From a virus, in the IMG/VR virus record IMGVR_UViG_3300028298_000021, positions 1-30,425 of that record: 30,425 nucleotides of DNA. One strand, 5' to 3'. Below the pieces are notes generated by a model, which saw only the letters and a list, made by a program, of their open reading frames with translations, was not told the origin of the DNA and ran no database searches. The stretch's first letter is position 1, and every line of letters starts with the position of its first letter. This document shows positions 1,461 through 27,159 of the stretch, piece after piece. The translations under genes and the position numbers were made by a program.

Positions 1461-1752
1461 GTTACAGTACACCCAAAAAGTTACACTTCGTTACACTATC
1501 AGCAAAAGTAGTGTAACCGTTATATTATATAGCGTTACAGTTAAAGTTACACTACTTTTAATAATTAATAATAATTAAACAATAAGGGGTATATGTATAC
1601 TATATGTATTAATGTATTACGTATATAGAATAGTCTTAAAGTTATAAAAAGTAGTGTAACAGTGTAACCGAAACCGCTAAAGTGTTGTTAGCGTGGTGTT
1701 TACGGCGGTTACACTACTTTTGAAAGTGTAACATTTTTTGAAAGAGTGTAAC
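1461..1752. repeat. Iteron cluster AGTGTAAC / GTTACACT
   Basis: Nine perfect copies of the 8-mer occur in 273 bp: + orientation (AGTGTAAC) at 1510, 1653, 1661, 1725 and 1745, and - orientation (GTTACACT) at 1480, 1490, 1546 and 1708. Relaxed copies (GTTACAGT) lie at 1461 and 1534, and GTTACGGT at 1773. Four copies carry the longer box AAAAGTAGTGTAAC, at 1504 and 1646 in + orientation and ending at 1559 and 1720 in - orientation. They form two head-to-head pairs that flank an AT-rich core. Nothing similar was noticed elsewhere in the window. This is the pattern of sites for a replication initiator. Confidence 0.85.
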
Positions 1753-10904: not shown

Positions 10905-10977
<73 letters not shown>

Positions 10978-11130
10978 CAAACATAACCGCCCTGAAAAGG
11001 ATTCCGGTATTGTAAACGCATAAGACTCCGCAGTCAATTCCACTCAAGTAGGCCCCGCAAGGATTCGCCGAAAGTTTGCTGAACTGAGGAAAAAGGTAAA
11101 ACTTTTACTCACAAGAAAACTTTTGGCAAA

Positions 11131-12752: not shown

Positions 12753-13205
12753 ATGTTTAAATTGTCGATGAACGGCGAAGTTGAAGTTTTGTTCGATTTC
12801 GCTTTTGTTGTTTATACGGGGCCTGACCCCGAAAGAATTGAAGGGTTGATTGCCGGAAAACCCGTCATGAAACGCGGAGTTCCGGTTATGGTGCTGAAAA
12901 AAGATGCAACCAAACTTATTCGATACCCGTTCTATCAGCCGTTTGAGCCTATGCCAAGCGATGTAACTTACAATATTGATACGGAAGTGAACGCGGTGCA
13001 TATTGATTACCCTGTAACTGAAGAAGTGCTGATAATCCCCGAGCCTGACGCGCCTATTGATGTAGAGTATAATGTGACCAATGATCTTGAGATTGCAGGC
13101 CTTGAGCTGGTTATTGCGCAGGAAAAGGAAAAGCCAAAGCAGACAAGAGTTCGCAGAAAAGAAGTGAAACCAAGAAAACCAAGAACCAAGCGAAATGCTG
13201 TTTGA
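12753..13205 (+). CDS. Virion-region protein with basic C-terminal tail, unknown
   Basis: This 150-residue protein begins MFKLSMNGEVEVLF and has a beta-rich first half and an acidic linker with PEPDAPID. A strongly basic tail of Lys, Arg and Pro (RVRRKEVKPRKPRTKR) follows. AAAAAGGGGAAAT just upstream gives a ribosome site. The basic tail could contact DNA or the acidic scaffold, but this is a guess. It overlaps the adaptor gene by 11 bases. No family recognised. A head-completion or connector-linked role fits the position. Confidence 0.65.
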   Translation: MFKLSMNGEVEVLFDFAFVVYTGPDPERIEGLIAGKPVMKRGVPVMVLKKDATKLIRYPFYQPFEPMPSDVTYNIDTEVNAVHIDYPVTEEVLIIPEPDAPIDVEYNVTNDLEIAGLELVIAQEKEKPKQTRVRRKEVKPRKPRTKRNAV

Positions 13206-14235
13206 GAAAGTAGCCGCTCATGGCGGGGTAGCGTATCAGTGCCTCCTTTTTGATAACGTCACGGTTGCTCCGGAAGAGTATCTTGACAGTGAAGCGTTCC
13301 CTATGCCCCCTGCTTCCGGTAACTACAGCGTACAGATCAGCGGTGTATCTGATGACGGGACGGCAAGTCTTGTGATGTCAGGAAGCAACATTCCGGGTGA
13401 TGATAACATTGCCGAGGTGTCCGGAGGATCAATACAGACGGGCATTACCGCTATAACGGGCGATGCACTCTATACGTTCTCTTTGAACGGAGTTGTTTAT
13501 CCTCGTGTGAGGATCAAGAACACCTCAACAACTGACCCGATAACGCTCACGGTATGGCTTGGCATTGAGGCGCAAGAAGGAAACATTGACCCGTCCGACT
13601 ACACGACACACATCCCTTGCTCCGTTGTGCAGAGAAAGGTAAAGCACAAATACAGAGACGACGTGTCAGAAATTCGGCTTCTTGATGCCATAAACGACTG
13701 CTTACGCGATATTGCTACGGATACGGAGTATTTCAGGGACAGCGTTGTTTTATCACTCTCAACCACTACAGACGAGTACAAGATTGCTGATGATCTTGTG
13801 TCTATCTCGGAAGTATACGCTGGAAACGGCGTGAAGCTTGAGCCTATCACAAAAAGTAAGGCAGCGGAAGGCGCAAGTGTCGGATGGGAAACAGAGCAAG
13901 GTACGGTTGAACATTTTATGACTGAAGGCGTGACGATTGGAAGCATAAGGCCTTACCCGTTGCCGGACACGGAAACACAGTCATTGACGGTTCATTATGT
14001 CAACTCTCCTTCACCTGTTGAATATTTGACAGAGTATATCCCTGTTGACCGGATATACACAAAAGCTATTGTTGATTACGTGGTAGCGCAGTTGTACGGT
14101 GACGATAACGACATGTACGACCAAAGGAAAGAGCGTGACCGGCTTGCAGAATACTTTCAAGGGAAGAGTAGGATTACGGCACAAGCAGCAGTTAACAGTT
14201 ACGCCACAATAACCATGCCATACAGGGTGATATAG
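13195..14235 (+). CDS. Head-tail adaptor protein with N-terminal beta domain
   Basis: This 346-residue protein appears to have two parts. Residues 1-140 are beta-rich and resemble a head-decoration module (SGGSIQTGITAITGDALYTF). Residues about 144-346 resemble phage neck adaptors such as P22 gp4 or DUF6682-type proteins. They include RLLDAINDCLRDIATDTEYF, then SLSTTTDEYKIADDLVSISEVYAG cut by strands, and a helical end KAIVDYVVAQLY with RKERDRLAEYF. Adaptors form the ring beneath the portal that joins head to tail. A separate decoration domain fused to an adaptor is unusual. The start overlaps the previous gene by 11 bases. Confidence 0.72.
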   Translation: MLFEKVAAHGGVAYQCLLFDNVTVAPEEYLDSEAFPMPPASGNYSVQISGVSDDGTASLVMSGSNIPGDDNIAEVSGGSIQTGITAITGDALYTFSLNGVVYPRVRIKNTSTTDPITLTVWLGIEAQEGNIDPSDYTTHIPCSVVQRKVKHKYRDDVSEIRLLDAINDCLRDIATDTEYFRDSVVLSLSTTTDEYKIADDLVSISEVYAGNGVKLEPITKSKAAEGASVGWETEQGTVEHFMTEGVTIGSIRPYPLPDTETQSLTVHYVNSPSPVEYLTEYIPVDRIYTKAIVDYVVAQLYGDDNDMYDQRKERDRLAEYFQGKSRITAQAAVNSYATITMPYRVI

Positions 14236-14236
14236 T

Positions 14237-14431
14237 ATGATGGTCATTGACAATAAATATGAGCTCGGGCAGCTTGTTTATGTAAAAGTTGAAGGGCAAC
14301 GCCCCGTAATGGTGATTGAAATATCAGTTGTTCAACATGGGCTTCTTTATCGTTGTGGTCGGGCTGATGGTGAAGCCAAGACGTTTTATGAGTGTGAGCT
14401 TTCTGAAACTCGGCAAGAATATGTAATTTAA
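14237..14431 (+). CDS. Small beta-barrel-like phage protein
   Basis: This 64-residue protein begins at 14237, one base after the adaptor stop, with a second ATG one codon in. The sequence KYELGQLVYVKVEGQRPVMV followed by YRCGRADGEAKTFYECEL resembles small SH3-like barrels found in many phages next to structural genes. No function is established. Its stop overlaps the next start as TAATG, so it is translated together with the large tail protein. Confidence 0.65.
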   Translation: MMVIDNKYELGQLVYVKVEGQRPVMVIEISVVQHGLLYRCGRADGEAKTFYECELSETRQEYVI

Positions 14432-17400
14432 TGGCAGAAGTCTTACGCTCACAGACGCGTAACTTTCTCGGAAGCAAGGTTACAAGACTTCAAGAACACC
14501 TTGTTGTTTCCCCTGATTACGTTGAATTGATTAACGCTGACGTATCAAGCGGTTCTGTTGTTCCGATAAAGGCCGATACTCTTGTTGACGGCTCAGTGCA
14601 GAAATCGTTCTGCAAATACAATGATGATTGGGTAAGCACTGATGCTGATGCAGAATATCTTGAGCACAACGGAAAGCTATATCTGACAGACGGACGCATA
14701 CCTAAAAAAATATACTCTTACCTTGACGTTGAATACACGGAAGATCTAGGTATAAATAAGCCTGGAACGGAAGACACTGCGACCCCTTTTTACTACGGTT
14801 CAATCCACACGCATCCTTATATGGACGCATGGTTTTTTGACCCGCTTGTGTTTGGGTTAAGAGGGACTGATACTTCGTCAGCAGGAACAGATGTTGATGT
14901 TTATAAATACTCTGACGCAGGGGCAACACTTCTTCAGACATATCACTTTTCTACGCCGCACGGGACAAAGTTGTTTGTCGGAGTTGTTGACAGCTCAACC
15001 GTCGCTGTGTTTGTGATGGGATCAGCCGCTATTAAATGGTTCAAATACTCTCTTGCCGCGAACACGTTTACGGCTCAAACGAACATAACGCTTACCGGAG
15101 GAGATACTTTTAAAAGCATTACCGGTGACCATACAACGTCTCAGGATGGGCAGTGGATGAGCGGGGCGCAGTCAGGTAGCCGGTGGGATAGCGGATGGTG
15201 TTTGGCTACATCAGCAACTCAATTAACCGATGGGGGCAATGCGTGGTACAACACTGCCAACATTTACACTAAAGACACCACAAACGCTACGTCAGGAGAT
15301 GTTGATACTCCTGAAACGCCACTTAAAAGCTTGCTTGCAGGGTTTACGATACCAACCCCACCGGAAGGGATAGAAAATTTTTACGTGTCAGTTCGGTGCG
15401 CTTACTCGTGGGCAAGCGGGACTGATTGGCGATGGAACACTATTAACAGGCTTCAGCTTTATAATGGGGGATGGATTGGAAACAACTATGCTCCAGTCGG
15501 AATATACCAAACTCAAACAGGAGCATTTGACGGGATTATATCTACAGGTGATTTTGGTGTGATAAACGGAATCACCCGCGCCATGATAACGGACGGAACC
15601 CTTAAGTTCGGGCTGAACTTTCAGTCTGGAAATAACGGAGATTGGTCGGTTAACTATGTTGAGATTCGTGTGTTTGGGCTTATTCCTTCGGTCGGGACAG
15701 GAGAAGATAAGTTTGAGCTATTTGCAGGGACGACGGATGGGCTGAAACGGTATTTGTTTAATTCAACAACAGGCATTACTCTTGTTGATACAACCTATGC
15801 AGGAAAAACCGTGCATAGTTGCTATTGGGATTACAGTAATATATCTGTTGCGTACACGGATGCAGGGGGAACGGCTAACCCGAAAATGGCATTGCTTAAT
15901 AGCTATACGCTTGGAGGGGCTCTTGAAACTGTTGTTTCTGCTTCTGTTTGCGAAGTCCCCGCCATGATATGCCACGACCCGTACAACGAGCTTTATGTTG
16001 CTGTTGACCCTGATTTATCTGATTCAGGTGATGGCGAGGTAGTGTGTTACGACAACATTACAACACTTGAGCTTGACAGAGTTGAGCTGCCTGATGTTGG
16101 AACTACGTTTCCTTCTGGGCTGTGTGCGGATGATTACAGGGTGTACACTTCTGACTTGCTTGGTTCGTATTCGTATATCAAAACATACCTGAACAGAACG
16201 CTTGAGTCAAGTGGCGATATATCCGGAGTATATGATTCCGCAAACTCTGGCAATTGCCGGTCAATAAGAAAATGTGATTCATATATTGTGGCTGCAACAG
16301 GATCAGCCGACCCGAACACTTTTAGCGGAATATGGATATACCACAAAAACAGTGAAGTGGTGCCAACAATAAGCCACTACACGCCGTGCCGAAGCAATAT
16401 GAACGGGGTGTATTCGTATGGGTTGACGTTTTACAACGAAAAAGACGGGACTGAGAGCGAAATGCTTTTGTTTGTCAGCGATGCTTACGTTGTAAACGGA
16501 TTAATTGAACTGAAAAATATACCGGAGCCAACTGATACTCAGGTAACAAAAAAACGGATTTGGAGAGTTGGAGGAGCGTTAAGATCATTTTCTCTTATTA
16601 CTGAACTTGATCTTGGAGTAACAAGTTACAAAGACTTGATTCCTGACAGTGAGGCAGGTGAATCAATTAGCCTTCTTGGCCGCAACAAACCGCCTCTTGA
16701 TTTGCGATATATCACGGAAGTGTTTGGGACATTCTTTGGGATAAGCGGGAATTATCTGTACTACACAACACAGGCAAACGCAAACTATTGGACGCTGTTT
16801 CCTCTCGATTTAGGAAAAGCAGGGACAGGGCTTGCTGTATGCGGACAGGGCTTGATTGCTTTTACTGCAACCAGGTCATATTTTTTATCTGGAACAACTT
16901 CAGACACGTTTCAGCTATACCCGCTATCAAGAACTCAGGGATGTGTTAACGGAAAAAGTATTCAAGAAGATATTGGTGGCGGGGTAAGGTGGATGAGTTC
17001 TGACGGGCTATGCTTCAGCAATGGAGGCAAACCTGTTGTGCAAAGCAAAGAGATTCTTGGCAAAATAGGATTCTCAGGGATAACATCTTCTGCCTTGTAC
17101 GATGATGTGTATTTTATGTCTCATGCTGACGGTGTGTTCATTGCTGATTTCAGGTATAATAACACAATACGGTTCAGCGATTTGTCAGACACTGACATTG
17201 ACGGTATGGGTGTCTTTGATGACTCACTGTATTTTATCCGTTCTGCGGGGCTGTATGGCGCATTTAACGCAACAATAAACCGCAAAGTTATCCTGAAAAG
17301 CGGAGTTGATGTTTCTACCGACCCGCTTGCTGTGAAATACTACAAAAACATCAGGGTGTGGTATAAAGGCAGACCGACAATCAAAGTGTATCTTGATGGT

Positions 17401-17568
17401 GTGCAATACGGAAAATCTCATGTATTAGACGCGGCGACAGTGGTGACAACAAAAGAGATAAGCCTTGAAGATTCGCCGCTGGCAAGGCATATTCAGTATC
17501 GCATAACAGGGGATTTTGAGTTACATTACATTGAGTATGTTTATGACGGGAACAAAAAACTAAGCTGA
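14431..17568 (+). CDS. Large beta-rich tail protein, hub/stabilisation type (P22 gp10-like)
   Basis: This 1,045-residue protein is dominated by predicted beta strands with propeller-like blades, for example FFGISGNYLYYTTQANANYW and VRWMSSDGLCFSNGGKPVV. In P22-like phages the corresponding slot encodes the gp10 packaged-DNA stabilisation protein, which plugs the neck. This protein is about twice as long. Residues about 215-420 look like an inserted jelly-roll domain containing NTINRLQLYNGG and WSVNYVEIRVFG. It matches the layout of the stand-alone protein at 27159. The C-terminal 100 residues (KYYKNIRVWYKGRPTIKVYL) form a beta-sandwich-like end common in phage tail proteins. Overlapping start and stop codons link it to both neighbours. 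The precise tail role is inferred. Confidence 0.72.
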   Translation: MAEVLRSQTRNFLGSKVTRLQEHLVVSPDYVELINADVSSGSVVPIKADTLVDGSVQKSFCKYNDDWVSTDADAEYLEHNGKLYLTDGRIPKKIYSYLDVEYTEDLGINKPGTEDTATPFYYGSIHTHPYMDAWFFDPLVFGLRGTDTSSAGTDVDVYKYSDAGATLLQTYHFSTPHGTKLFVGVVDSSTVAVFVMGSAAIKWFKYSLAANTFTAQTNITLTGGDTFKSITGDHTTSQDGQWMSGAQSGSRWDSGWCLATSATQLTDGGNAWYNTANIYTKDTTNATSGDVDTPETPLKSLLAGFTIPTPPEGIENFYVSVRCAYSWASGTDWRWNTINRLQLYNGGWIGNNYAPVGIYQTQTGAFDGIISTGDFGVINGITRAMITDGTLKFGLNFQSGNNGDWSVNYVEIRVFGLIPSVGTGEDKFELFAGTTDGLKRYLFNSTTGITLVDTTYAGKTVHSCYWDYSNISVAYTDAGGTANPKMALLNSYTLGGALETVVSASVCEVPAMICHDPYNELYVAVDPDLSDSGDGEVVCYDNITTLELDRVELPDVGTTFPSGLCADDYRVYTSDLLGSYSYIKTYLNRTLESSGDISGVYDSANSGNCRSIRKCDSYIVAATGSADPNTFSGIWIYHKNSEVVPTISHYTPCRSNMNGVYSYGLTFYNEKDGTESEMLLFVSDAYVVNGLIELKNIPEPTDTQVTKKRIWRVGGALRSFSLITELDLGVTSYKDLIPDSEAGESISLLGRNKPPLDLRYITEVFGTFFGISGNYLYYTTQANANYWTLFPLDLGKAGTGLAVCGQGLIAFTATRSYFLSGTTSDTFQLYPLSRTQGCVNGKSIQEDIGGGVRWMSSDGLCFSNGGKPVVQSKEILGKIGFSGITSSALYDDVYFMSHADGVFIADFRYNNTIRFSDLSDTDIDGMGVFDDSLYFIRSAGLYGAFNATINRKVILKSGVDVSTDPLAVKYYKNIRVWYKGRPTIKVYLDGVQYGKSHVLDAATVVTTKEISLEDSPLARHIQYRITGDFELHYIEYVYDGNKKLS

Positions 17569-17738
17569 TGGCAGACGAAGGACTTAATAGGGTGACAGAT
17601 ACAACTGATTCCGTGCAATTGTCTCGGTATCTTGAGCAGGTTCTTGTTAAGTTTCGGTCACTTGAAGCGAGAATGTCTGCCGCAGAAATAAAAGAAAGTT
17701 CGCTTGACGCAAGAATAACCGTATTGGAGGCTCCTTAA
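17568..17738 (+). CDS. Small coiled-coil protein
   Basis: This 56-residue ORF is linked to both neighbours, starting at TGATG on the tail protein stop and ending at TAATG on the next start. The sequence SRYLEQVLVKFRSLEARMSA followed by AEIKESSLDARITVLEA is a heptad-rich helix, likely a coiled coil. The tight coupling on both sides is strong evidence that it is translated. GGAGG near its end also serves as the ribosome site of the next gene. Function unknown. A trimeric tail or ejection component is possible. Confidence 0.75.
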   Translation: MADEGLNRVTDTTDSVQLSRYLEQVLVKFRSLEARMSAAEIKESSLDARITVLEAP

Positions 17739-18397
17739 TGGCACTATTAGCAGCACTATCAGCAGGGGTAAGTATTGTCAGCGGCATTGCTGGATTGTTT
17801 GGCAGTGGTGGGGCGGACTTAAAAGCAAGGCAGCTTGCAAGTGATCAACTTGCTACTCAAAGGGAAAGTCTTGGCTTCGCCATGACGCAGTACGAAGACT
17901 GGAAGAAAACGTATGGCGTTGTTGAGAAACAGATGTCAGATTACTACGTGAGCAGTAATGGGCAGATGCAGATGGATGCTGCGGCAAACATGATCGAAAC
18001 CTCGTTCCGAAACGTCCCGACTGATATTAACAGAATTGCTGAACAGCGAGGACTCGGTGAAGGACAGAAAGCTGCAATGCTTAGCGAGGCTCTTGTATCA
18101 AAAGCGGAGAGCAAAGCTCTTGGCCGTATCAACGCAGGGACTCAGTTCAGGTCAGAGAAAGCCGGTTTTGTCGCAAGCGGTCAAGATGCCAAAGGTCAGG
18201 CTACTACGGGAGTGTTGAACAGTTATAACCAAATGGCGCAGTTGCTTGGTCAGCAATATCAAGCCATGCAAGGGCAGGCTTCTTCAGGATCAACAGCAGC
18301 AGGGAGCGCTATATCAAGCGGAATAGCATTGCTTGCGTCTGGACTTGGTGGCGGAACAAGTTCGGCAAGTACAAGTAAAATGGGAACACCACTATGA
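17738..18397 (+). CDS. Probable DNA-ejection/internal virion protein
   Basis: This 219-residue protein has a hydrophobic, small-residue N-terminus (MALLAALSAGVSIVSGIAGL). A helical Gln/Ala-rich body follows, with SFRNVPTDINRIAEQRGLGE and many AAG/SSG segments, and then a Gly/Ser-rich hydrophobic C-terminus (AISSGIALLASGLGGG). This is the layout of podovirus ejection proteins such as P22 gp7 or N4/T7 internal core proteins. These enter the host envelope with the DNA and help form a trans-envelope channel. GGAGG lies about 9 bases before the ATG. It is followed by a coupled small Lys-rich gene and two more candidate ejection proteins. Family assignment is by composition and order. Confidence 0.7.
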   Translation: MALLAALSAGVSIVSGIAGLFGSGGADLKARQLASDQLATQRESLGFAMTQYEDWKKTYGVVEKQMSDYYVSSNGQMQMDAAANMIETSFRNVPTDINRIAEQRGLGEGQKAAMLSEALVSKAESKALGRINAGTQFRSEKAGFVASGQDAKGQATTGVLNSYNQMAQLLGQQYQAMQGQASSGSTAAGSAISSGIALLASGLGGGTSSASTSKMGTPL

Positions 18398-18541: not shown

Positions 18542-19216
18542 ATGGGCGCACTTGAGTTAGGAAAAGCACTTGGCGGAGTAGCGGAAGGGTATATGCGCGG
18601 CATTAAGATCAAGGAAGAGCAAGCTGCAAAACGCCTTGACCAACTTATGACTGAGCAGACATTAGCCAAAAACGAAATGTTGTTGAAGAAGTCACGGGAA
18701 GAAGACATGAAAGATAAGGCTGCAAGTGAAATAGATGCAGAGTTGTGGAAAGCAAAGACTACCGGAAATCTGGCGGAGTTTAAAGATAGTTTTGGAAAGA
18801 TTCACTCTCCGTTCACGGTTGGAACAATGGTAAACAAAGACGGGACGGTTGATATTGTAAGTTCGATTGATGGGTCAAAACTCAAAACCGTGACGTTTGG
18901 TGAGTTTTCCAATGCTGTTTATCGATCAGTGGCAGGTAAAGACCATGAGCTATATACTGAAGAAGTAAAAGCGCGGTCAATGGAAATCAAAGACACGCAA
19001 GAGGCTGAACTTATCAAGCTAAGACAAAAAGAAGAGCGGATCACAAAGCAGACACCACCCGGAGAAAACCCTAATGTGACTGCGCGGGAAAACAAGGCAC
19101 TTGAACTAAAAAAATCATCGACTGCCGCTTACATCGAATCTCTTCGTAAAGGAAAGGAGGGTGAACCGGCTCCGCAACCCCCAAGTGCAGGAAGCGTGTT
19201 TGGTGTAAAAAAGTGA
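18542..19216 (+). CDS. Probable second internal virion/ejection protein
   Basis: This 224-residue, mostly helical protein begins MGALELGKALGGVAEGYMRG, continues with a long charged helix full of Lys, Glu and Gln (residues 20-70), and contains one compact beta segment (GTMVNKDGTVDIVSSIDGSK). It ends in a Pro/Gly-rich tail (PAPQPPSAGSVFGVKK). It sits between the ejection-type protein at 17738 and the giant ejection protein at 19359, and is the last gene before a strong terminator. Function in genome delivery is inferred from position and composition. No family is recognised with certainty. Confidence 0.65.
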   Translation: MGALELGKALGGVAEGYMRGIKIKEEQAAKRLDQLMTEQTLAKNEMLLKKSREEDMKDKAASEIDAELWKAKTTGNLAEFKDSFGKIHSPFTVGTMVNKDGTVDIVSSIDGSKLKTVTFGEFSNAVYRSVAGKDHELYTEEVKARSMEIKDTQEAELIKLRQKEERITKQTPPGENPNVTARENKALELKKSSTAAYIESLRKGKEGEPAPQPPSAGSVFGVKK

Positions 19217-19358: not shown

Positions 19359-22300
19359 ATGCCGACCATTACAGACAGCCTTTATGATTTCCTTGTTCAG
19401 CACGCTTCTGATATGCCGGATAAGGTTACGTTCAATAAGACTCTTCAGGACAAAGGAAAGCGAGAAGAGCTGCACAAGTTTATGAATCAGCACTTCGCTG
19501 ATGTTCCTGACTTCCAGACATTCGATACACTACTTGGTTCAAGGGACATGACGTTCACGGAGAACGCAGGTCGGGTAATCGGGGAAGTAGTGCAGACTGT
19601 TCAGAAAATTCCTGAGCTTGCTCAGCATGGGTGGACACAAGGGCAGATTGACTCAGAGATAAACCGCGCAGTACCGGACGCTGAAAAAGTTGCTACGCTG
19701 ATTGATCAACAAAAAGACATTAAGCCTACAAAGACACAGCAGAGGGCGCAAACTCCGAGCGAGACTATAATCCCCGGCGGGTTTATAGAAAACCCCGTGT
19801 CGTGGCTTACAGAGATGTCTATTACTTCGGCATCAACCATGCTGCCGCAGGTACTCGAACGTGCTCCTGAAAATCTTGCTCTAGGAATGGTTGCGGGTGC
19901 GGCTATAGGCACGGCATATGGAACGCCTGTGCTTGGCTTTGGTGCATTGCCTGGTGCTATAGCTGGGGTAGTATTAGGCGCAGGAACAGCTATCCCTATA
20001 TCTCTTGCTCAAGCAAGCAAAGTACAAGCGCAGTCTGAGTTGTTGTTAGGCAAACTGAAAGACGTGTACGGTGTTGATATAAATAATCACGACGAACTTG
20101 TTGCCGCGCTGAGCGATACAAAGCTAATCAATAAGATCAAGGGCGACGTTTATTTTGCCGCAGAGACACAAGGGTTTTTTGACGGTATAGCTGCAACGTT
20201 TGGTGGAGGGATAGCAAAGACAGCCATAAAAAAGTTTGGTTCCGGTTTTGCGGCAAAAGTTGTCGGTGAGACGGGTGAGTTTGCTTTTCAGGCCGCTTCC
20301 GGTATGGCGGGAGAAGCAGGGAAGCAGGTCATTACGTCAGGGAAAGTAACAAGTCCCGCTGATGTTGTTGCTGAAGGGCTTGGTGAAATGCCTTCGGTCG
20401 GCATTCCTGCGCGGGTTGGAAAAGCCGCAATCCGTAAGGTAGGAGAATCAATAATGTTTACGTCAAACACAGGAGATCAAGCGCACTTTAATCGCCTCAA
20501 TCCTGACTTCCGCACTCGGTTTGAGGCAATGGCGGAAGAGTACAAGCAAAAGACAGGCAAAAAATTGCAGGTGAACAGTGCGGCTCGAAGCAATGCTGAA
20601 CAGCAGGCAATATATGATTCTGGTGTGCGCCCTGCGGCAAAGCCGGGCAAAAGCAGGCACAACAGAGGCGCGGCGGTGGACGTTGGCCGGCAGAATGTCG
20701 CTGACCTGTCAAGCTTAGGGCTGCTTGAAAAGTACGGATTTGAGACGGGCGCGGCGTTTGGTGATCCGAACCACATACAGGACTCAGGCGAGACTGTTGA
20801 CGTTCAATCACTTGACATGTTGCCGGATGACTTGAGAGCGCAGTACGAAGAGACTGACGCAGTTGTGAACCCTGCTCCTGAACCCGTTCCGGCAGAGCCG
20901 ACAGCAATGGAGCAGTTGCAGCGTGAGTTTGTGGATGCGAAGCCATTGGAGAGCGCGCCTGAACCGGCCCTGAATCAGCCTGAAGTGGTGCAAGATGCGG
21001 AGGTCGCTCCGGAGAACCCGCAGGTAGCAGTGCAGCCAGCGGCAAAACTAACTATCAAAGAGGCCTTGTTAGCTCTAAAAGCTATCAAAGAATCCTTGTC
21101 AGCTCAGGATAATGTTGCGCCCCAAGATGCGGAGGTCGCTCCGGAGGCAGTGGTAAACCCGTATTATCGGTCAACTCAAACGACATCTTTCCAGAGTGAT
21201 CCGGATGCAGTGGTAACCCCTGAAACTCCTGCCAGGCAGGAAAATGTTGCGCCCCAAGTTGCGGAGGTTATTTCGGAGACCCCGCAAGTAGCGGTGCAGC
21301 CAAAGGCAAATCCAACGATCAATGAATCCTTGTCAGTTCAGCAAAACGTAGTACCTGACGAAGTGAAATCAATAGAGAAGAAAGAGCCGTGGCAGATGAC
21401 GAAAAATGAGTTTGATCTTTCTGGAATACTTCCTGATGATTCCGTGTTATCTGAAATAGAAAGCAGAAAGCCGAAAAAGAGAAGAGGTATTTCAGGAAAT
21501 CTTCCTGCGTTGTCAGCATATGAAAATTCTTTAAGGAAATGGGTTACGGAATATAAGCAAGCGTTAAAAAGCCAACACAAAAGAATAGTTGAGCAAGCTA
21601 TTGACGAAGGGAAACCTGTTCCAGTGGAAGTCCTTGTTGATTACCCTGAATTGCAAAGCTCAATGCCTTCGGTTTCGGCACAGCCTGAAAGCATAACGGT
21701 GGACGACCAGAACCTTGGCCGACCTGGAGCAAGCACGTACTCTCCTGACCAACAGCAAGGAGATTCAACGGGCGCATTGACAAACCAAGAAGACTTGTCT
21801 GGGTCGTTCAAAAAAACAACAAAATCAACAACGTATAGTATATCTGATTCCGTCCCAGATCAAAATCAAGCAACCGCTGGCACGTTCAATATGGTTGACA
21901 GGGTTCTTGCGCTTAAGGAGAAATACGCAAAACGTATCAGTGAAAAAGGTGCAGGAAGGTATCGCGGCAAATATGATACAAAAACAAAAAGCATCATGGT
22001 TCGCTCATTGCGAAACCTTACCGATACGGCCCATGAAATATCGCACTACATAACAGACAAGTACAGTATCGACAAAAAAGTTCTTAGCGGAAATTACGGG
22101 AAGATTGTTAATGAGATTATCAATGTTTATGAGAAGTATTACGGAGATTCTCAGCCACTCCTTACTAACGACAGGACAAAAGTTGTTGAAGGTATATCAA
22201 CATTTATTGAGGCATACATTATTGATCCGGTATCCGCAAGAAAAGAGTTCCCTGAATTAACAAAGGCAATAATTTTAAACGAGGGCGCGTTCAGTGATGG

Positions 22301-25034
22301 CATTCTTTCTGATTTCTTGAAAGACGCAAGGAAAATAGTAAACGATTATCACGCACTTGATTCAAACGGAAAAATAGGATCAGCAGTAACGAGTAATAAC
22401 AGGAAAGTTGGCGGGAAAGCTATTTTTTCTTGGTTTGAAAACATAGGGAAAGAGATTGCTGATAACATTTCTCCTATTGAAAGGATTGGGAAAATAGCTG
22501 GTACGGCATGGTCAAAAGCTGATCCGTCTTTGCATTTAAGACAATTTCTGAACATCAGTAGGTACGTGCTTCATAACATAAAGGACGGAATAACTTTTAT
22601 GGTGTTTGAGAACGGTGATCTTGTTGAGAAAGAGCAGTTCAATTACGGAACGCTTGGAAAAGAGATTGAGAAAGCCGGTGACATGGCTGAGTTTGATAAT
22701 TGGCTTGTTGCTCGCCTGCACGTTAAAGGTCGTGAATTGCTTGGAAAAATGATTGCAGAGTACAACCAGTCTTTATCAGACATTCAAAGTATTCTCAGCT
22801 CTGGAATAGGCAATGCAAAAGAAAAGTTTGATGAAGCGCAAGCGTTCATTGATGGGTACGACAGGTTAAAATCCGTTCTTGATAATGATGATATTGACAT
22901 AGAGGTTGCTATAGATGCTTACAATAAGGATGCGAAGCGTTTCAAACATTATGCAGATAAATTTGACGCATTGCAGAAAGCAACAAATAACATGATGGCT
23001 GACGCTGACATTCAATTACTTACTCCTGAGCTTAGAGATTTGTATGCCGAAAGTGAAGGGTATGTGACTATGAAGCGGTCGATGTATGATGAGATTGGTG
23101 GAGAGCCAGGAGAACCGACAACACTTGGTGGAACAAGCAGGGTTTCATCATACTTGACAAGGACAGGTTCAGGAAAGGAGATTATCAGTCCGTTTTATTC
23201 AACGATCAAAAACCATGCTGAGGCGTTTCGGAAAGGAATGAAGCAGGTGGTTTATAATAAGCTCGGTGATATATTCGAGAAAAACCCAGAGTTGTTCCCT
23301 GCACAAAAAGAAGAAGGGGACGCAAGGTTATTCGCTAATAGCAAGGACCATATCATTGCTATGGATAATTATACACCCGTAGCATGGAAGGTTGGTCGAG
23401 AAATAAAGGACGTGGTAGACCAGACCCTTGACTATAAAAAAGTTCATAAGGTCGAGTCAGTATTAAGGGCTTCAAATAGACTATTTCAGATGGGGACTAC
23501 AGCAATGTATGTTGCTTTTGCCGCAACAAATATTGTTATGGATCAGTTTGTGGCAACTATGAACAGCCGGACGGGTGTATATGTACCGTTACTCACGCCA
23601 ATAAACATTCTTGTCCGTAGGTTTGCGAACCATTCTTCTCCGGAAGCCGTCTACGCAAGAGAGTATTTTTTGCTTGGTGGAGAAAGACAGACGTTTGCGC
23701 ATTGGCAAGACTTAAGCCCATCCGAGTTCTTTGATAAGGTGTATAAGGAAAAAAGCGCTTTCAAACATGCCGCAACAATGGTTTGGAAGTATTCTGGCGG
23801 TGGAGTTGTTAATACTCTCAAATGGCTTGGAGAAAAAAGTGAAATTATGACACGTTCTGCTGAATACGTTAAAGCTCGAAAACTTGGGTATCCACAAATA
23901 GCGGCACTTGAACTTGCTGGACGTGTTACAACTCCATTTCATCATACAGGAAGGCTCGGTGGAGGGACTGTTGGAGAGTCAGCAATACGAAGTATCACGT
24001 TCTTCAATCCGCAGATACAAGCTCTTGCTCAGTTTACGGATACGCTGTCTCGGCCAGATGGAAGAGCAAAAGTTGCTTTTGTCACTGCGGCTATAACCGT
24101 TGCAGGTGTTTCGGGCGTTCTTGCTATATGCGGTGGTGGCAGTGATGAACAAAAGCGGATTCTTAAAGGAAAAACACCGGAAGAGTTGGCAATGTATATG
24201 TACTTTCCGCACCCAACTGACCCGAACAAAGTTGTTAATATCCGTGTTCCCCAGGAAATCAACACCATAGCGACCATGATAAACATGGTTATGATGAATG
24301 ATATGATTAACTCACGATACACAGCAGGAGAGTATCTTGACGGTGCAACAGCATGGATTCCGGATCAACTCAACCCATTAGACCCGACGCGGCAGTTTTT
24401 TTCTCTTATGCCGCAAGCAATAAAAACAAGCGTTGAGCTTTCGACAAACACAAGGACGTTTCCGAAAGTCATGCCAATAGATACGTATTGGGAAGAACGA
24501 TATAAAGAACCTCGGTTCAGAACGACAGAACGGACAAGCGAAATAGCAAAATACGTTGGAGCTAAATTCAATGTATCGCCAAAAAAAATAGATTATGCCA
24601 TACTTGGGTATGGATCACGTGGCCTTACTCAGTTTTCTCTATCTAACATACGAAACCCGTTTGAACGCGAGTTGTATATGGGTGGTGTTCGGCAAATGCA
24701 CGTGTTTTATAACGAATCAAGAAAGTTTGATGAACTGAAAAGTTCAATAAAAAACGGATGGCGCGTCCCTGCTGATGAAGCATTGATGAAGCAAACCGAG
24801 AAACAAATAAAATCAGTTAATGATGCTATATCCGAATACTCAAGAGTGCCGACAGCAAACAAAGAACGGTTAAAAGAGGCAAGAGCAAAAGTTCTTGACG
24901 CTATCGACACAGTTGATTATACCGCTATAGGCAAAATAGAAGAGTCAGCAAAAGTGATTGATATGCCAGAGTACAAGAAACCGGTAAAAGAGAAAAAGAT
25001 AAATCAAGTCCGCATCCCAAAACCTCCGGGATAG
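19359..25034 (+). CDS. Giant polyvalent ejection protein: M15 peptidase, HExxH motif, LPD38-like domain
   Basis: This 1,891-residue virion protein is likely packaged and injected with the DNA. Residues about 173-220 form a small-residue hydrophobic segment (GMVAGAAIGTAYG...) suited to membrane insertion. Residues about 375-475 are an M15/VanY-type peptidase: SRHNRGAAVD (432-441) gives ligands H434 and D441, and DPNH (469-472) gives D469 and H472. It should cut peptidoglycan peptides during entry. Residues 520-680 are a Pro/Ala/Glu-rich linker with 44-residue repeats. AHEISHY has an HExxH zinc motif (892-896), suggesting a second metalloprotease. Residues about 1370-1755 resemble LPD38, a domain of phage polyvalent proteins, with hydrophobic stretches such as AAITVAGVSGVLAICGGG. 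No polymerase domain is visible. Domain calls are by motif. Confidence 0.82.
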   Translation: MPTITDSLYDFLVQHASDMPDKVTFNKTLQDKGKREELHKFMNQHFADVPDFQTFDTLLGSRDMTFTENAGRVIGEVVQTVQKIPELAQHGWTQGQIDSEINRAVPDAEKVATLIDQQKDIKPTKTQQRAQTPSETIIPGGFIENPVSWLTEMSITSASTMLPQVLERAPENLALGMVAGAAIGTAYGTPVLGFGALPGAIAGVVLGAGTAIPISLAQASKVQAQSELLLGKLKDVYGVDINNHDELVAALSDTKLINKIKGDVYFAAETQGFFDGIAATFGGGIAKTAIKKFGSGFAAKVVGETGEFAFQAASGMAGEAGKQVITSGKVTSPADVVAEGLGEMPSVGIPARVGKAAIRKVGESIMFTSNTGDQAHFNRLNPDFRTRFEAMAEEYKQKTGKKLQVNSAARSNAEQQAIYDSGVRPAAKPGKSRHNRGAAVDVGRQNVADLSSLGLLEKYGFETGAAFGDPNHIQDSGETVDVQSLDMLPDDLRAQYEETDAVVNPAPEPVPAEPTAMEQLQREFVDAKPLESAPEPALNQPEVVQDAEVAPENPQVAVQPAAKLTIKEALLALKAIKESLSAQDNVAPQDAEVAPEAVVNPYYRSTQTTSFQSDPDAVVTPETPARQENVAPQVAEVISETPQVAVQPKANPTINESLSVQQNVVPDEVKSIEKKEPWQMTKNEFDLSGILPDDSVLSEIESRKPKKRRGISGNLPALSAYENSLRKWVTEYKQALKSQHKRIVEQAIDEGKPVPVEVLVDYPELQSSMPSVSAQPESITVDDQNLGRPGASTYSPDQQQGDSTGALTNQEDLSGSFKKTTKSTTYSISDSVPDQNQATAGTFNMVDRVLALKEKYAKRISEKGAGRYRGKYDTKTKSIMVRSLRNLTDTAHEISHYITDKYSIDKKVLSGNYGKIVNEIINVYEKYYGDSQPLLTNDRTKVVEGISTFIEAYIIDPVSARKEFPELTKAIILNEGAFSDGILSDFLKDARKIVNDYHALDSNGKIGSAVTSNNRKVGGKAIFSWFENIGKEIADNISPIERIGKIAGTAWSKADPSLHLRQFLNISRYVLHNIKDGITFMVFENGDLVEKEQFNYGTLGKEIEKAGDMAEFDNWLVARLHVKGRELLGKMIAEYNQSLSDIQSILSSGIGNAKEKFDEAQAFIDGYDRLKSVLDNDDIDIEVAIDAYNKDAKRFKHYADKFDALQKATNNMMADADIQLLTPELRDLYAESEGYVTMKRSMYDEIGGEPGEPTTLGGTSRVSSYLTRTGSGKEIISPFYSTIKNHAEAFRKGMKQVVYNKLGDIFEKNPELFPAQKEEGDARLFANSKDHIIAMDNYTPVAWKVGREIKDVVDQTLDYKKVHKVESVLRASNRLFQMGTTAMYVAFAATNIVMDQFVATMNSRTGVYVPLLTPINILVRRFANHSSPEAVYAREYFLLGGERQTFAHWQDLSPSEFFDKVYKEKSAFKHAATMVWKYSGGGVVNTLKWLGEKSEIMTRSAEYVKARKLGYPQIAALELAGRVTTPFHHTGRLGGGTVGESAIRSITFFNPQIQALAQFTDTLSRPDGRAKVAFVTAAITVAGVSGVLAICGGGSDEQKRILKGKTPEELAMYMYFPHPTDPNKVVNIRVPQEINTIATMINMVMMNDMINSRYTAGEYLDGATAWIPDQLNPLDPTRQFFSLMPQAIKTSVELSTNTRTFPKVMPIDTYWEERYKEPRFRTTERTSEIAKYVGAKFNVSPKKIDYAILGYGSRGLTQFSLSNIRNPFERELYMGGVRQMHVFYNESRKFDELKSSIKNGWRVPADEALMKQTEKQIKSVNDAISEYSRVPTANKERLKEARAKVLDAIDTVDYTAIGKIEESAKVIDMPEYKKPVKEKKINQVRIPKPPG
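20991..21360 (+). repeat. 132-bp period repeats in the giant protein linker
   Basis: The 24-base block starting CAAGATGCGGAGGTCGCTCC occurs identically at 20991 and 21123, and in diverged form at 21255, an exact 132-base (44-codon) period. The 16-mer AATGTTGCGCCCCAAG is also exact at 21111 and 21243. The middle of the second unit is unrelated to the first, so the linker has grown by duplication followed by replacement. The protein equivalent is a QDAEVAPE...NVAP unit. Confidence 0.85.
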
Positions 25035-25521: not shown

Positions 25522-27159
25522 ATGGCTCTTGCTGTAACGACCATAACGAACTACGGTGGGAACACCTATGTCTGCACTCCGTTCTCTTCTGTCACGCTGG
25601 CTGCGGGCGGAAACTCTGTCTCTGACGTTATTGATATAGCGCAAAGCAGTTTTTCCACTCAGGTTAGTGACTACTCCGGAACAGGCACTATTACCCTTCA
25701 AGTCCTTGTTGAGAACTTTGATGCTGAATCTGACGGGGTTGTTCCGTCTGGACTGGCAAACATATTTACATCTATAAGCGCAAACGGGACGTACACGTTC
25801 ACGATGCCTTCTGGTGTATATAAGAGGCTCAAGGTGACAGAAACGGGCGGGGTGTCGAGTGCTACGTTCACGATCACTCTTGCTGGCACAGGGAAGGATG
25901 TAGGAGAAAAAGGCGACACCGGCGATACCGGTGCTGATCCTGAACTACGGGAGTATGACGGGTACTTGCAGTGGAACGATGCGGGGGTGTGGCGCAACCT
26001 TGTGAAATGGTCTGAGGTTTTGATAGGTGAGGTTGTTCCGGCAGATTTCCGCGTATATGAAGGGTATATTCAGTGGTCTGATTCTGGCGGGAACTGGACT
26101 GATCTTGTGTTGCTGAGTACGTTGAAAGGGGATACAGGAGCGACAGGCACACAAGGCCCTGCTGGCCCAACAGGAGCAACAGGAGCACAAGGCCCTACTG
26201 GACCAACAGGAGCAGCGGGCCCTGCGGGAAGTGGAAGCGGAGATGTGCTTGGCCCTGCGTCAAATCACACTAATTATTTGCCACAATGGAACGGAGCGAA
26301 CAGTAAAACGCTGAAAGACGGGTACCCTGTATCAGCAACATCAGGAGCAGGAACCGTTCCTGTATCCGATGACAACGGGAAAGTAGATACTTGGGTTACG
26401 GACTCAAGCGCAACAACAAAGGGCAAGGTAGAGCTTGCGACAAACGCTGAAACAATAACAGGTACGGACTCTGCGCGAGCGACAACTCCCGCGAACATAG
26501 CGGCGGTGCTTGCTGATAAAAGTACAGCAACACCTACGGCAAGTAAAATCCCCATTGCCGACGGCAGTGGGAAGCTGGATACTTGGGTAAGTGATTCAGG
26601 CGCGACAGTTAAAGGAAAGGTTGAGTTATCCACTGATGCCGAAACGATTACCGGAACAGACGCTGTTAGAGCAACTACACCGGCAAACATTGCCGCGCTT
26701 CTGGCGAACAAGTCAACAGCAACTCCGACAGCAAGCAAAATCCCGATTGCGGACGGCGATAAACTTCTTGATGGGTGGATTACTCGGTCTGCTTTTTGCC
26801 CTGTAGCGGCTATAGGAGGATCAGTTGCTACAGGTGACGGTAAAGGATACGTCCCTATGCCTGCGGAAGTGAACGGATTTAATCTTATAGGTGTTGTGCT
26901 GAATCTTGCCGTTGTAAGTTCAAGCGGATCACCTACCTACCAACTCAGGCGCAAAAGAGGCGGTACAGACGCAGATATGTTATCGACGAAGGTTACATGT
27001 GATATAAACGAGCTAACGTCAGCGACAGCCGCGACAGCCGCAGTTATTAACACGTCAAACGATGACATTCAGACAGGTGATTACATCTACTTTGATAAGG
27101 ATGCCACAGGAACAGGAGAAAAAGGCGATGCAATAACGCTACGATTCCGTAAAGCATAA
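25522..27159 (+). CDS. Collagen-like tail fibre
   Basis: This 545-residue protein is a probable trimeric fibre. A beta-rich head-binding domain fills residues 1-125. A short GEKGDTGDTGA stretch follows at about 128-138, then two related beta motifs (GYLQWNDAGVWRNLV and GYIQWSDSGGNWTDLV). About twelve Gly-X-Y triplets occupy about 203-240, expected to form a collagen-like triple helix. Residues 288-420 carry two full 64-residue repeats plus the start of a third (TKGKVELATNAETITGTD..RATTPANI), the tail-fibre repeat family that often precedes the receptor tip. The C-terminal 120 residues are a beta-rich tip. Overlapping TAATG links it to the next gene. Receptor unknown. Confidence 0.82.
   Translation: MALAVTTITNYGGNTYVCTPFSSVTLAAGGNSVSDVIDIAQSSFSTQVSDYSGTGTITLQVLVENFDAESDGVVPSGLANIFTSISANGTYTFTMPSGVYKRLKVTETGGVSSATFTITLAGTGKDVGEKGDTGDTGADPELREYDGYLQWNDAGVWRNLVKWSEVLIGEVVPADFRVYEGYIQWSDSGGNWTDLVLLSTLKGDTGATGTQGPAGPTGATGAQGPTGPTGAAGPAGSGSGDVLGPASNHTNYLPQWNGANSKTLKDGYPVSATSGAGTVPVSDDNGKVDTWVTDSSATTKGKVELATNAETITGTDSARATTPANIAAVLADKSTATPTASKIPIADGSGKLDTWVSDSGATVKGKVELSTDAETITGTDAVRATTPANIAALLANKSTATPTASKIPIADGDKLLDGWITRSAFCPVAAIGGSVATGDGKGYVPMPAEVNGFNLIGVVLNLAVVSSSGSPTYQLRRKRGGTDADMLSTKVTCDINELTSATAATAAVINTSNDDIQTGDYIYFDKDATGTGEKGDAITLRFRKA
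26383..26781 (+). repeat. 192-bp fibre repeats
   Basis: Two complete 192-base units begin at 26383 and 26575, and a third start is recognisable at 26767 (LDTWV, LDTWV, LDGWI). The encoded 64-residue units are nearly the same protein, but the DNA differs at many third positions. This indicates an old duplication held by selection, not a recent slippage event. Confidence 0.8.

What the first reader, a model, noticed from the sequence alone, without database searches (positions are those of the whole stretch)
19359..25034. 1,891-residue protein joining M15 peptidase, HExxH motif and LPD38-like region
One virion protein appears to carry an entry peptidase (H434, D441, D469, H472), a second putative metalloprotease site (HEISH 892-896), membrane-active segments and a polyvalent-protein domain. 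Polyvalent proteins are thought to act in the cell right after injection. The function of LPD38 is unknown, so the HExxH part could act on host defence proteins or process the giant protein itself.
Basis: partly seen in the sequence, partly recalled or inferred. Interest (0 to 1): 0.7.

Follow-up and report, generated by a model that had tools for sequence, protein, structure and literature searches.

The report
Two-protease phage ejection protein (M15, zincin, LPD38)
A virus of bacteria encodes a giant protein, probably packed in its head and injected at infection, that joins a cell-wall-cutting peptidase to a conserved 1,000-residue tail end made of a second, probably active zinc protease and a membrane-inserting domain; related viruses keep that tail end and carry different parts in front of it.

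Summary
The 1,891-residue ORF is real and has significant M15/VanY and LPD38 Pfam matches. HEISH is not a chance match: H892, E893 and H896 are invariant in all 16 aligned relatives, and so is E944, 48 residues after H896. AlphaFold places HEISH and E944 in two core helices of a zincin fold (isolated domain pLDDT 86); its nearest solved structures are all zincins (lethal factor catalytic domain, PPEP-1, IrrE, ArdC).

The zincin and LPD38 form one conserved ~1,000-residue C-terminal block. HExxH lies 931-1047 residues from the C-terminus in 14 proteins of 1,128-3,399 residues, while the N-terminal cargo changes: M15 here, elsewhere a 2H phosphoesterase, ADP-ribosyltransferase, helicase plus methylase, or RadC plus GGDEF. 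A conserved hydrophobic segment precedes LPD38. The gene follows a DNA-ejection-like gene and precedes a tail-fibre gene. The JC1 relative was found in virions by others.

Most likely it is a podovirus ejection protein: M15 opens peptidoglycan, hydrophobic segments enter the inner membrane, and the zincin processes the protein. The zincin substrate is untested. No other sampled protein combines M15 with zincin-LPD38. New variant of a known kind.

The parts
19359..25034 (+). ORF of the 1891-residue protein
19890..20432 (+). residues 178-358: Gly/Ala-rich hydrophobic N-terminal domain shared with L045, L046, L029
   Evidence: first hits 1.7e-9 for L045, 9.7e-23 for L046, 3.8e-16 for L029; hydrophobic peak 187-220
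20481..20801 (+). residues 375-481: M15 (VanY/LdcB-like) peptidase domain; H434, D441, D469, H472
20973..21349 (+). Pro/Ala-rich linker with three diverged copies at 132-nt (44-residue) spacing between M15 and zincin
21873..22382 (+). residues 839-1008: zincin metallopeptidase domain
22032..22046 (+). HEISH motif, residues 892-896
22188..22190 (+). E944, invariant, predicted third zinc ligand in the second core helix
22431..24812 (+). residues 1025-1818: conserved C-terminal module, of which LPD38 is the end
   Evidence: held-out JC1 gp69 matched at 3.2e-91 over almost the whole profile
24072..24128 (+). residues 1572-1590: conserved hydrophobic segment just before LPD38
   Evidence: most hydrophobic stretch of the module in 22 of 26 rows at the same alignment columns
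24210..24641 (+). residues 1618-1761: LPD38 (PF18857)
17738..18397 (+). 219-aa gene, DNA ejection family phrog_21132
   Evidence: E 1.4e-15
18542..19216 (+). 224-aa gene, weak virion structural match; candidate second ejection protein
   Evidence: E 0.0042
14431..17568 (+). 1045-aa gene, phrog_511 (internal virion protein); C-terminal third resembles short-tail proteins
13195..14235 (+). SU10-type head-tail adaptor
   Evidence: E 1.5e-14
25522..27159 (+). collagen-like tail fibre gene downstream

Best explanation
This is the large internal (ejection) protein of a podovirus of bacteria with a peptidoglycan-containing envelope. Before infection it sits in the head with smaller ejection proteins. 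On infection it is expelled through the short tail. The M15 domain (residues 375-481) cuts peptide bonds of peptidoglycan so that the ejection channel can cross the wall. The hydrophobic segments (178-220 and 1572-1590) insert in the inner membrane, and the C-terminal module (1025-1818) is the conserved packaging/ejection chassis. The zincin (839-1008) is an active zinc protease with ligands H892, H896 and E944 and general base E893. It most likely cleaves its own polypeptide, in or near the linker between the M15 part and the chassis, during head maturation or after ejection, separating the periplasmic from the membrane or cytoplasmic part. Shown computationally: domains, motifs, fold, conserved coupling, gene position. 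Inferred: virion location, ejection, membrane insertion, catalysis by both domains. Least certain: self-cleavage (about 0.5 on its own).
For: M15: Pfam and PHROG matches; nearest solved structures are LdcB/DacB peptidases; nearest database relatives lie in phage tail or baseplate proteins, e.g. Vibrio phage phiKT1024 beside baseplate genes. Zincin: invariant HExxH plus Glu, AlphaFold pLDDT 86 and pTM 0.82, VIA-align Z 8.2 to the lethal factor catalytic domain, 6.9 to PPEP-1, 5.8 to IrrE/PprI, 4.9 to ArdC, MtfA by sequence at E 0.002. Coupling: HExxH 931-1047 residues from the C-terminus in 14 proteins with complete C-termini; relatives fetched with the zincin alone and then scanned (L041, L044-L046) also carry LPD38. 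Membrane segment. Ejection context; pelagiphage HTVC204P gp40, an LPD38 protein, sits between internal virion protein genes and the tail fibre gene. Virion: JC1 gp69, with an HExxH motif and LPD38, was found by mass spectrometry in purified virions with 51 unique peptides (PMC9144972).
Against: No measurement on this phage. The usual M15 catalytic Glu is Asp (D469), although eight M15 relatives share the D-x-x-H form. The zincin-LPD38 block also occurs without a recognised N-terminal enzyme (L030, L032, L036), so cargo release is not its only possible role. LPD38 proteins without the zincin exist (HTVC204P and relatives). No sequence relationship to T7 gp16 was found. N4 vRNAP, which also has an HExxH domain, is packaged uncleaved (PMC5512222).
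Confidence: 0.6

Rival explanations
1. The zincin is an effector that cuts a host protein, such as a restriction or other defence factor, after injection; the chassis only delivers it.
For: The fold neighbours are specific proteases (lethal factor, PPEP-1) and the plasmid antirestriction protein ArdC. Relatives carry other conflict-type cargo such as a 2H phosphoesterase, ADP-ribosyltransferase, and helicase with methylase. Iyer et al. list this option (PMC5512222).
Against: An effector should be exchangeable, but here the zincin is fixed to the C-terminal module while the N-terminal cargo is exchanged.
Confidence: 0.22
2. The zincin fold is kept for structure or packaging, and proteolysis is minor or absent in this phage.
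For: N4 vRNAP has an HExxH domain, is packaged uncleaved, and the region around that domain is needed for encapsidation (PMC5512222; structure in PMC12633501).
Against: All three putative ligands and the general base are invariant in 16 sequences that are otherwise down to 16% identical to the window, which is hard to explain without metal binding or catalysis.
Confidence: 0.15
3. The M15 domain is the lysis endolysin or a decayed passenger, not an entry enzyme.
For: PHROG names the family endolysin; the catalytic Glu is Asp.
Against: It lies inside a 1891-residue protein among head and tail genes; its nearest relatives are in large virion-type proteins; eight relatives share D-x-x-H, and both His and the Asp ligand are kept.
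Confidence: 0.08

Closest known systems
Phage polyvalent proteins with zincin-like MPTase and LPD38 (Iyer et al. 2017, PMC5512222)
   Same: Giant phage protein with several unrelated domains, a zincin with HExxH plus a Glu in the next helix, LPD38; predicted delivery at infection
   Different: M15 is not mentioned in that paper; here LPD38 is shown to be the end of a ~770-residue module coupled to the zincin at fixed spacing
Burkholderia phage JC1 gp69 (DarB-like, 4515 aa)
   Same: Wall-degrading domain near the N-terminus, HExxH (HEAFH 3465) before the same C-terminal module (3.2e-91), LPD38; found in virions
   Different: SLT transglycosylase instead of M15; carries DNA methylase, helicase and LPD3; its HExxH region was not matched by our zincin profile
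T7 gp16 and other podovirus ejection proteins
   Same: Likely gene position before the tail fibre, wall-degrading domain, membrane segments near both ends
   Different: No detectable sequence relation to the C-terminal module; M15 instead of SLT; extra zincin
N4 virion RNA polymerase C-terminal part (PMC12633501)
   Same: HExxH subdomain followed by a large, mostly helical ~1100-residue region
   Different: No convincing profile match (E 0.16); N-terminal part is an RNA polymerase
Lethal factor catalytic domain / PPEP-1 / MtfA zincins
   Same: Fold and HExxH plus downstream Glu
   Different: About 15% identity; different protein, no targeting domain in common; sequence cut-offs of those families not reached

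Membership tests
M15 peptidase (VanY/LdcB-like, PF02557) | Profile match above the curated cut-off | tested here: met
   29.2 bits vs 25
M15 peptidase (VanY/LdcB-like, PF02557) | Zinc ligands H, then D seven residues on, and a later H | tested here: met
   H434, D441, H472
M15 peptidase (VanY/LdcB-like, PF02557) | Acidic base three residues before the last His (Glu in the LdcB type) | tested here: inconclusive
   Acidic residue present but D469, not Glu; eight relatives also have Asp
M15 peptidase (VanY/LdcB-like, PF02557) | Peptidoglycan hydrolysis | not testable with these tools
   needs protein
Zincin metallopeptidase with HExxH plus Glu | HExxH in a helix | tested here: met
   model helix 58-72 holds HEISH 63-67
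Zincin metallopeptidase with HExxH plus Glu | Third ligand Glu in the following core helix | tested here: met
   E944 (model 115) invariant in 16, in helix 109-126; distance to zinc not measured
Zincin metallopeptidase with HExxH plus Glu | Fold similarity to solved zincins | tested here: met
   VIA Z 8.2 to 4.6 for lethal factor, PPEP-1, IrrE/PprI, ArdC; zincin-type entries fill the list down to about Z 4; Foldseek E not significant
Lethal factor / M34 family or MtfA / M90 family | Profile match above cut-off | tested here: not met
   window zincin: no Pfam match; ATLF and M90 only weakly in a few relatives
LPD38 (PF18857) | Profile match above the curated cut-off | tested here: met
   48.8 bits vs 27
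Phage polyvalent protein | Several unrelated domains in one phage protein, including MPTase or LPD | tested here: met
   M15, zincin, LPD38
Phage polyvalent protein | Delivered with the virion | not testable with these tools
   virion location shown for JC1 gp69 only (PMC9144972)
T7 gp16 family | Sequence homology to gp16 | tested here: not met
   hhalign probability 0.1, E 0.54; not matched
T7 gp16 family | Gene position shortly before the tail fibre, after other internal/ejection genes | tested here: met
   window and HTVC204P

The most novel reading that the evidence does not exclude
The zincin-LPD38 block is a general self-processing delivery chassis: any N-terminal cargo fused to it is packaged, ejected through the tail, anchored at the inner membrane by the conserved hydrophobic segment, and cut loose by the zincin. 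This phage used it to carry a wall peptidase.
Probability: 0.3. Interest if true: 0.72.

Novelty: new variant of a known kind. Interest (0 to 1): 0.48.

Why it matters
In the source paper the function of LPD38 is left open, and its Pfam model covers only 189 residues. Here it is the end of a ~770-residue module coupled at fixed spacing to a zincin, with a conserved hydrophobic segment and interchangeable cargo in front. That makes a specific hypothesis testable: a common chassis for packing and ejecting proteins into bacteria. The M15-zincin-LPD38 combination was not found in any other protein sampled.

Tried and rejected
Homology to T7 gp16: no match by HMM search of single proteins or profile-profile comparison with five gp16 proteins. 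Homology to the N4 vRNAP C-terminal part: only the HExxH stretch lines up, E 0.16. A PDB relative of the C-terminal module: Foldseek gave nothing significant, and VIA-align mostly returned long-helix matches; absence is not proof. Plasmid relatives of the zincin: none. Relatives in bacterial genomes with the four-sequence alignment: none. Whole-protein search of IMG/VR returned only an M15 relative. The zincin-only single-sequence scan returned nothing; the alignment-based scan worked. The idea that the zincin occurs only when an enzyme cargo is present was dropped: L030, L032 and L036 have it with no recognised cargo. HExxH as chance: 2.5% per protein of this composition, rejected because of conservation. 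PHROG names for neighbours of the relatives in L024 and L028: no matches, so their gene context stays open. Rfam and tRNA scans gave only a tRNA-Trp outside the gene.

Full report
Observation. The gene is an uninterrupted ORF of 1891 codons at 19359-25034 on the + strand. The record is a 30,425-base virus contig, possibly a fragment. Pfam gives VanY/M15 at 379-448 (E 9.1e-7) and LPD38 at 1618-1761 (E 1.1e-12), both above the curated cut-offs. The HExxH region matches no Pfam or NCBIfam family above cut-off, so it had to be tested by relatives and fold.

Relatives. tblastn against GenBank phages found only M15-type matches for the whole protein. The C-terminal half gave two weak hits, Burkholderia phage JC1 gp69 and pelagiphage HTVC204P gp40, both with strong LPD38. 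An alignment of these with the window pulled 18 loci from IMG/VR, one of which (L005) is 31% identical from residue 870 almost to the C-terminal end. Iterating brought L023 and L024 (31-32% identical over ~1000 residues) and a wider set with the zincin.

Zincin. In 16 aligned proteins, H892, E893, H896, E944 and G945 are invariant. The consensus reads G-x-Y...AAHE[IV]AH...EGFAEF. AlphaFold of residues 840-1891 with 26 sequences (pLDDT 73) and of residues 830-1010 alone with 16 sequences (pLDDT 86, pTM 0.82) both give helix, three strands, helix with HExxH, further helices, then the helix with E944: the zincin core described for polyvalent MPTases (PMC5512222). VIA-align places the lethal factor catalytic domain first (Z 8.2, 133 residues), then PPEP-1 (6.9), IrrE/PprI (5.8) and ArdC (4.9); entries that are clearly not zincins start at Z 4.0. 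Foldseek itself reached no significant E-value, so the fold claim rests on the agreement of the ranking, the sequence motif and the weak MtfA profile match (E 0.002). Zinc distances were not measured.

M15. The domain has H434, D441, D469, H472 and aligns with M15 domains of other phages; its nearest solved relatives are LdcB/DacB peptidases. The position of the catalytic Glu is Asp here. Among 44 IMG/VR M15 proteins, eight share D-x-x-H (L056-L060, L062, L063, L070) and most others have E-x-W-H, so Asp is a natural variant. Database relatives sit in large phage tail proteins, for example next to baseplate genes in Vibrio phage phiKT1024, which fits a role in entry. None of the 44 M15 proteins, some of which are cut off by contig ends, matches the zincin or the C-terminal module.

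C-terminal chassis. A profile of the module (window residues 1025-1818) matches the held-out JC1 gp69 at 3.2e-91 over nearly its whole length; LPD38 is only the last part of this module. HExxH lies 931-1047 residues from the C-terminus in the 14 proteins with complete C-termini, whatever their total length (1,128 to 3,399 residues, the shortest being 5' truncated). Every relative with this zincin that was scanned with Pfam also has LPD38. In front of this block the cargo differs: M15 (window); 2H phosphoesterase (L023, L024); ADP-ribosyltransferase (L044); RadC and GGDEF (L029); SNF2 helicase and methylase (L038). In 22 of 26 aligned modules the most hydrophobic 19 residues lie at the same columns just before LPD38 (window 1572-1590). 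BFVD holds many predicted structures of the same fold, named LPD38 or uncharacterised (77 with E <= 0.001).

N-terminal part and linker. Residues 178-358 are a Gly/Ala-rich hydrophobic domain shared with L045, L046 and L029. Between M15 and the zincin lies a ~350-residue stretch, Pro/Ala-rich in its first part, with three diverged 44-residue repeats, as expected for a flexible tether and a likely place for cleavage (inference).

Context and mechanism. Upstream are terminase, portal, major capsid, SU10-type adaptor, a large tail or internal protein, and a DNA-ejection family gene; downstream is a collagen-like tail fibre. HTVC204P has its LPD38 protein in the corresponding position. In SU10 the ejection proteins include a transglycosylase proposed to open peptidoglycan (PMC9509320); in T7 gp16 the wall enzyme, membrane segments and cytoplasmic part lie in one protein (PMC8954989). 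JC1 gp69 is a virion protein by mass spectrometry (PMC9144972). The best-supported reading is an ejection protein with M15 in place of the usual transglycosylase. There is no sequence relation to T7 gp16, so 'works like gp16' is an analogy, not membership.

What the zincin cuts. Nothing here identifies a substrate. The fixed coupling to the chassis with changing cargo favours processing of the protein itself, as proposed for polyvalent proteins (PMC5512222). The presence of the block without recognised cargo (L030, L032, L036), LPD38 proteins without the zincin, and N4 vRNAP being packaged uncleaved keep a structural role or a host target open.

Novelty. Zincin plus LPD38 in phage polyvalent proteins is known. 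New here, within what was sampled, are the M15 fusion, the extent of the C-terminal module beyond Pfam LPD38, its fixed spacing to the zincin, and the conserved hydrophobic segment. It is a new variant of a known kind.

Noticed in passing
L023:6223-11967 residues 622-716; L024:6003-11966 residues 610-712: Relatives carry a 2H phosphoesterase (2_5_RNA_ligase2, E 8e-10 and 1e-10; weak match to anti-CBASS Acb1, about 2e-5, below cut-off) in the same chassis; L023 also has a weak ParB_N match. A possible virion-delivered nucleotide-signal or RNA enzyme.
   Followed up: partly
L029:160-10356: 3399-aa LPD38 protein with RadC and GGDEF domains before the zincin.
   Followed up: no
L038:475-10476: 3334-aa LPD38 protein with Eco57I-type methylase, SNF2/helicase and a SecA cross-linking-domain match.
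   Followed up: no
L009:1863-9263 residues 1068-1157 and 1402: LPD38 protein with two HExxH motifs, one matching the lethal-factor-type ATLF Pfam domain (E 1.5e-5), plus a ddrB-ParB domain.
   Followed up: no
L056, L057, L058, L059, L060, L062, L063, L070: A phage M15 subgroup with D-x-x-H instead of E-x-W-H at the catalytic position.
   Followed up: partly
window 10905-10978: tRNA-Trp (cca) gene inside the structural gene cluster, just before the major capsid gene.
   Followed up: no
window 20973-21349: Three diverged 132-nt repeat units encoding a Pro/Ala/Val/Glu-rich linker; copies are 71-86% identical to the reference unit over 42 nt.
   Followed up: partly
L004:178-13722 residue 3465: JC1 gp69, annotated DarB-like antirestriction, carries an HEAFH motif with a downstream Glu, before the LPD38 module.
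   Followed up: partly
window 14431-17568: 1045-aa protein whose C-terminal third matches short-tail or stabilization proteins of podoviruses; in the listed tblastn hits nothing matched the N-terminal 650 residues.
   Followed up: no
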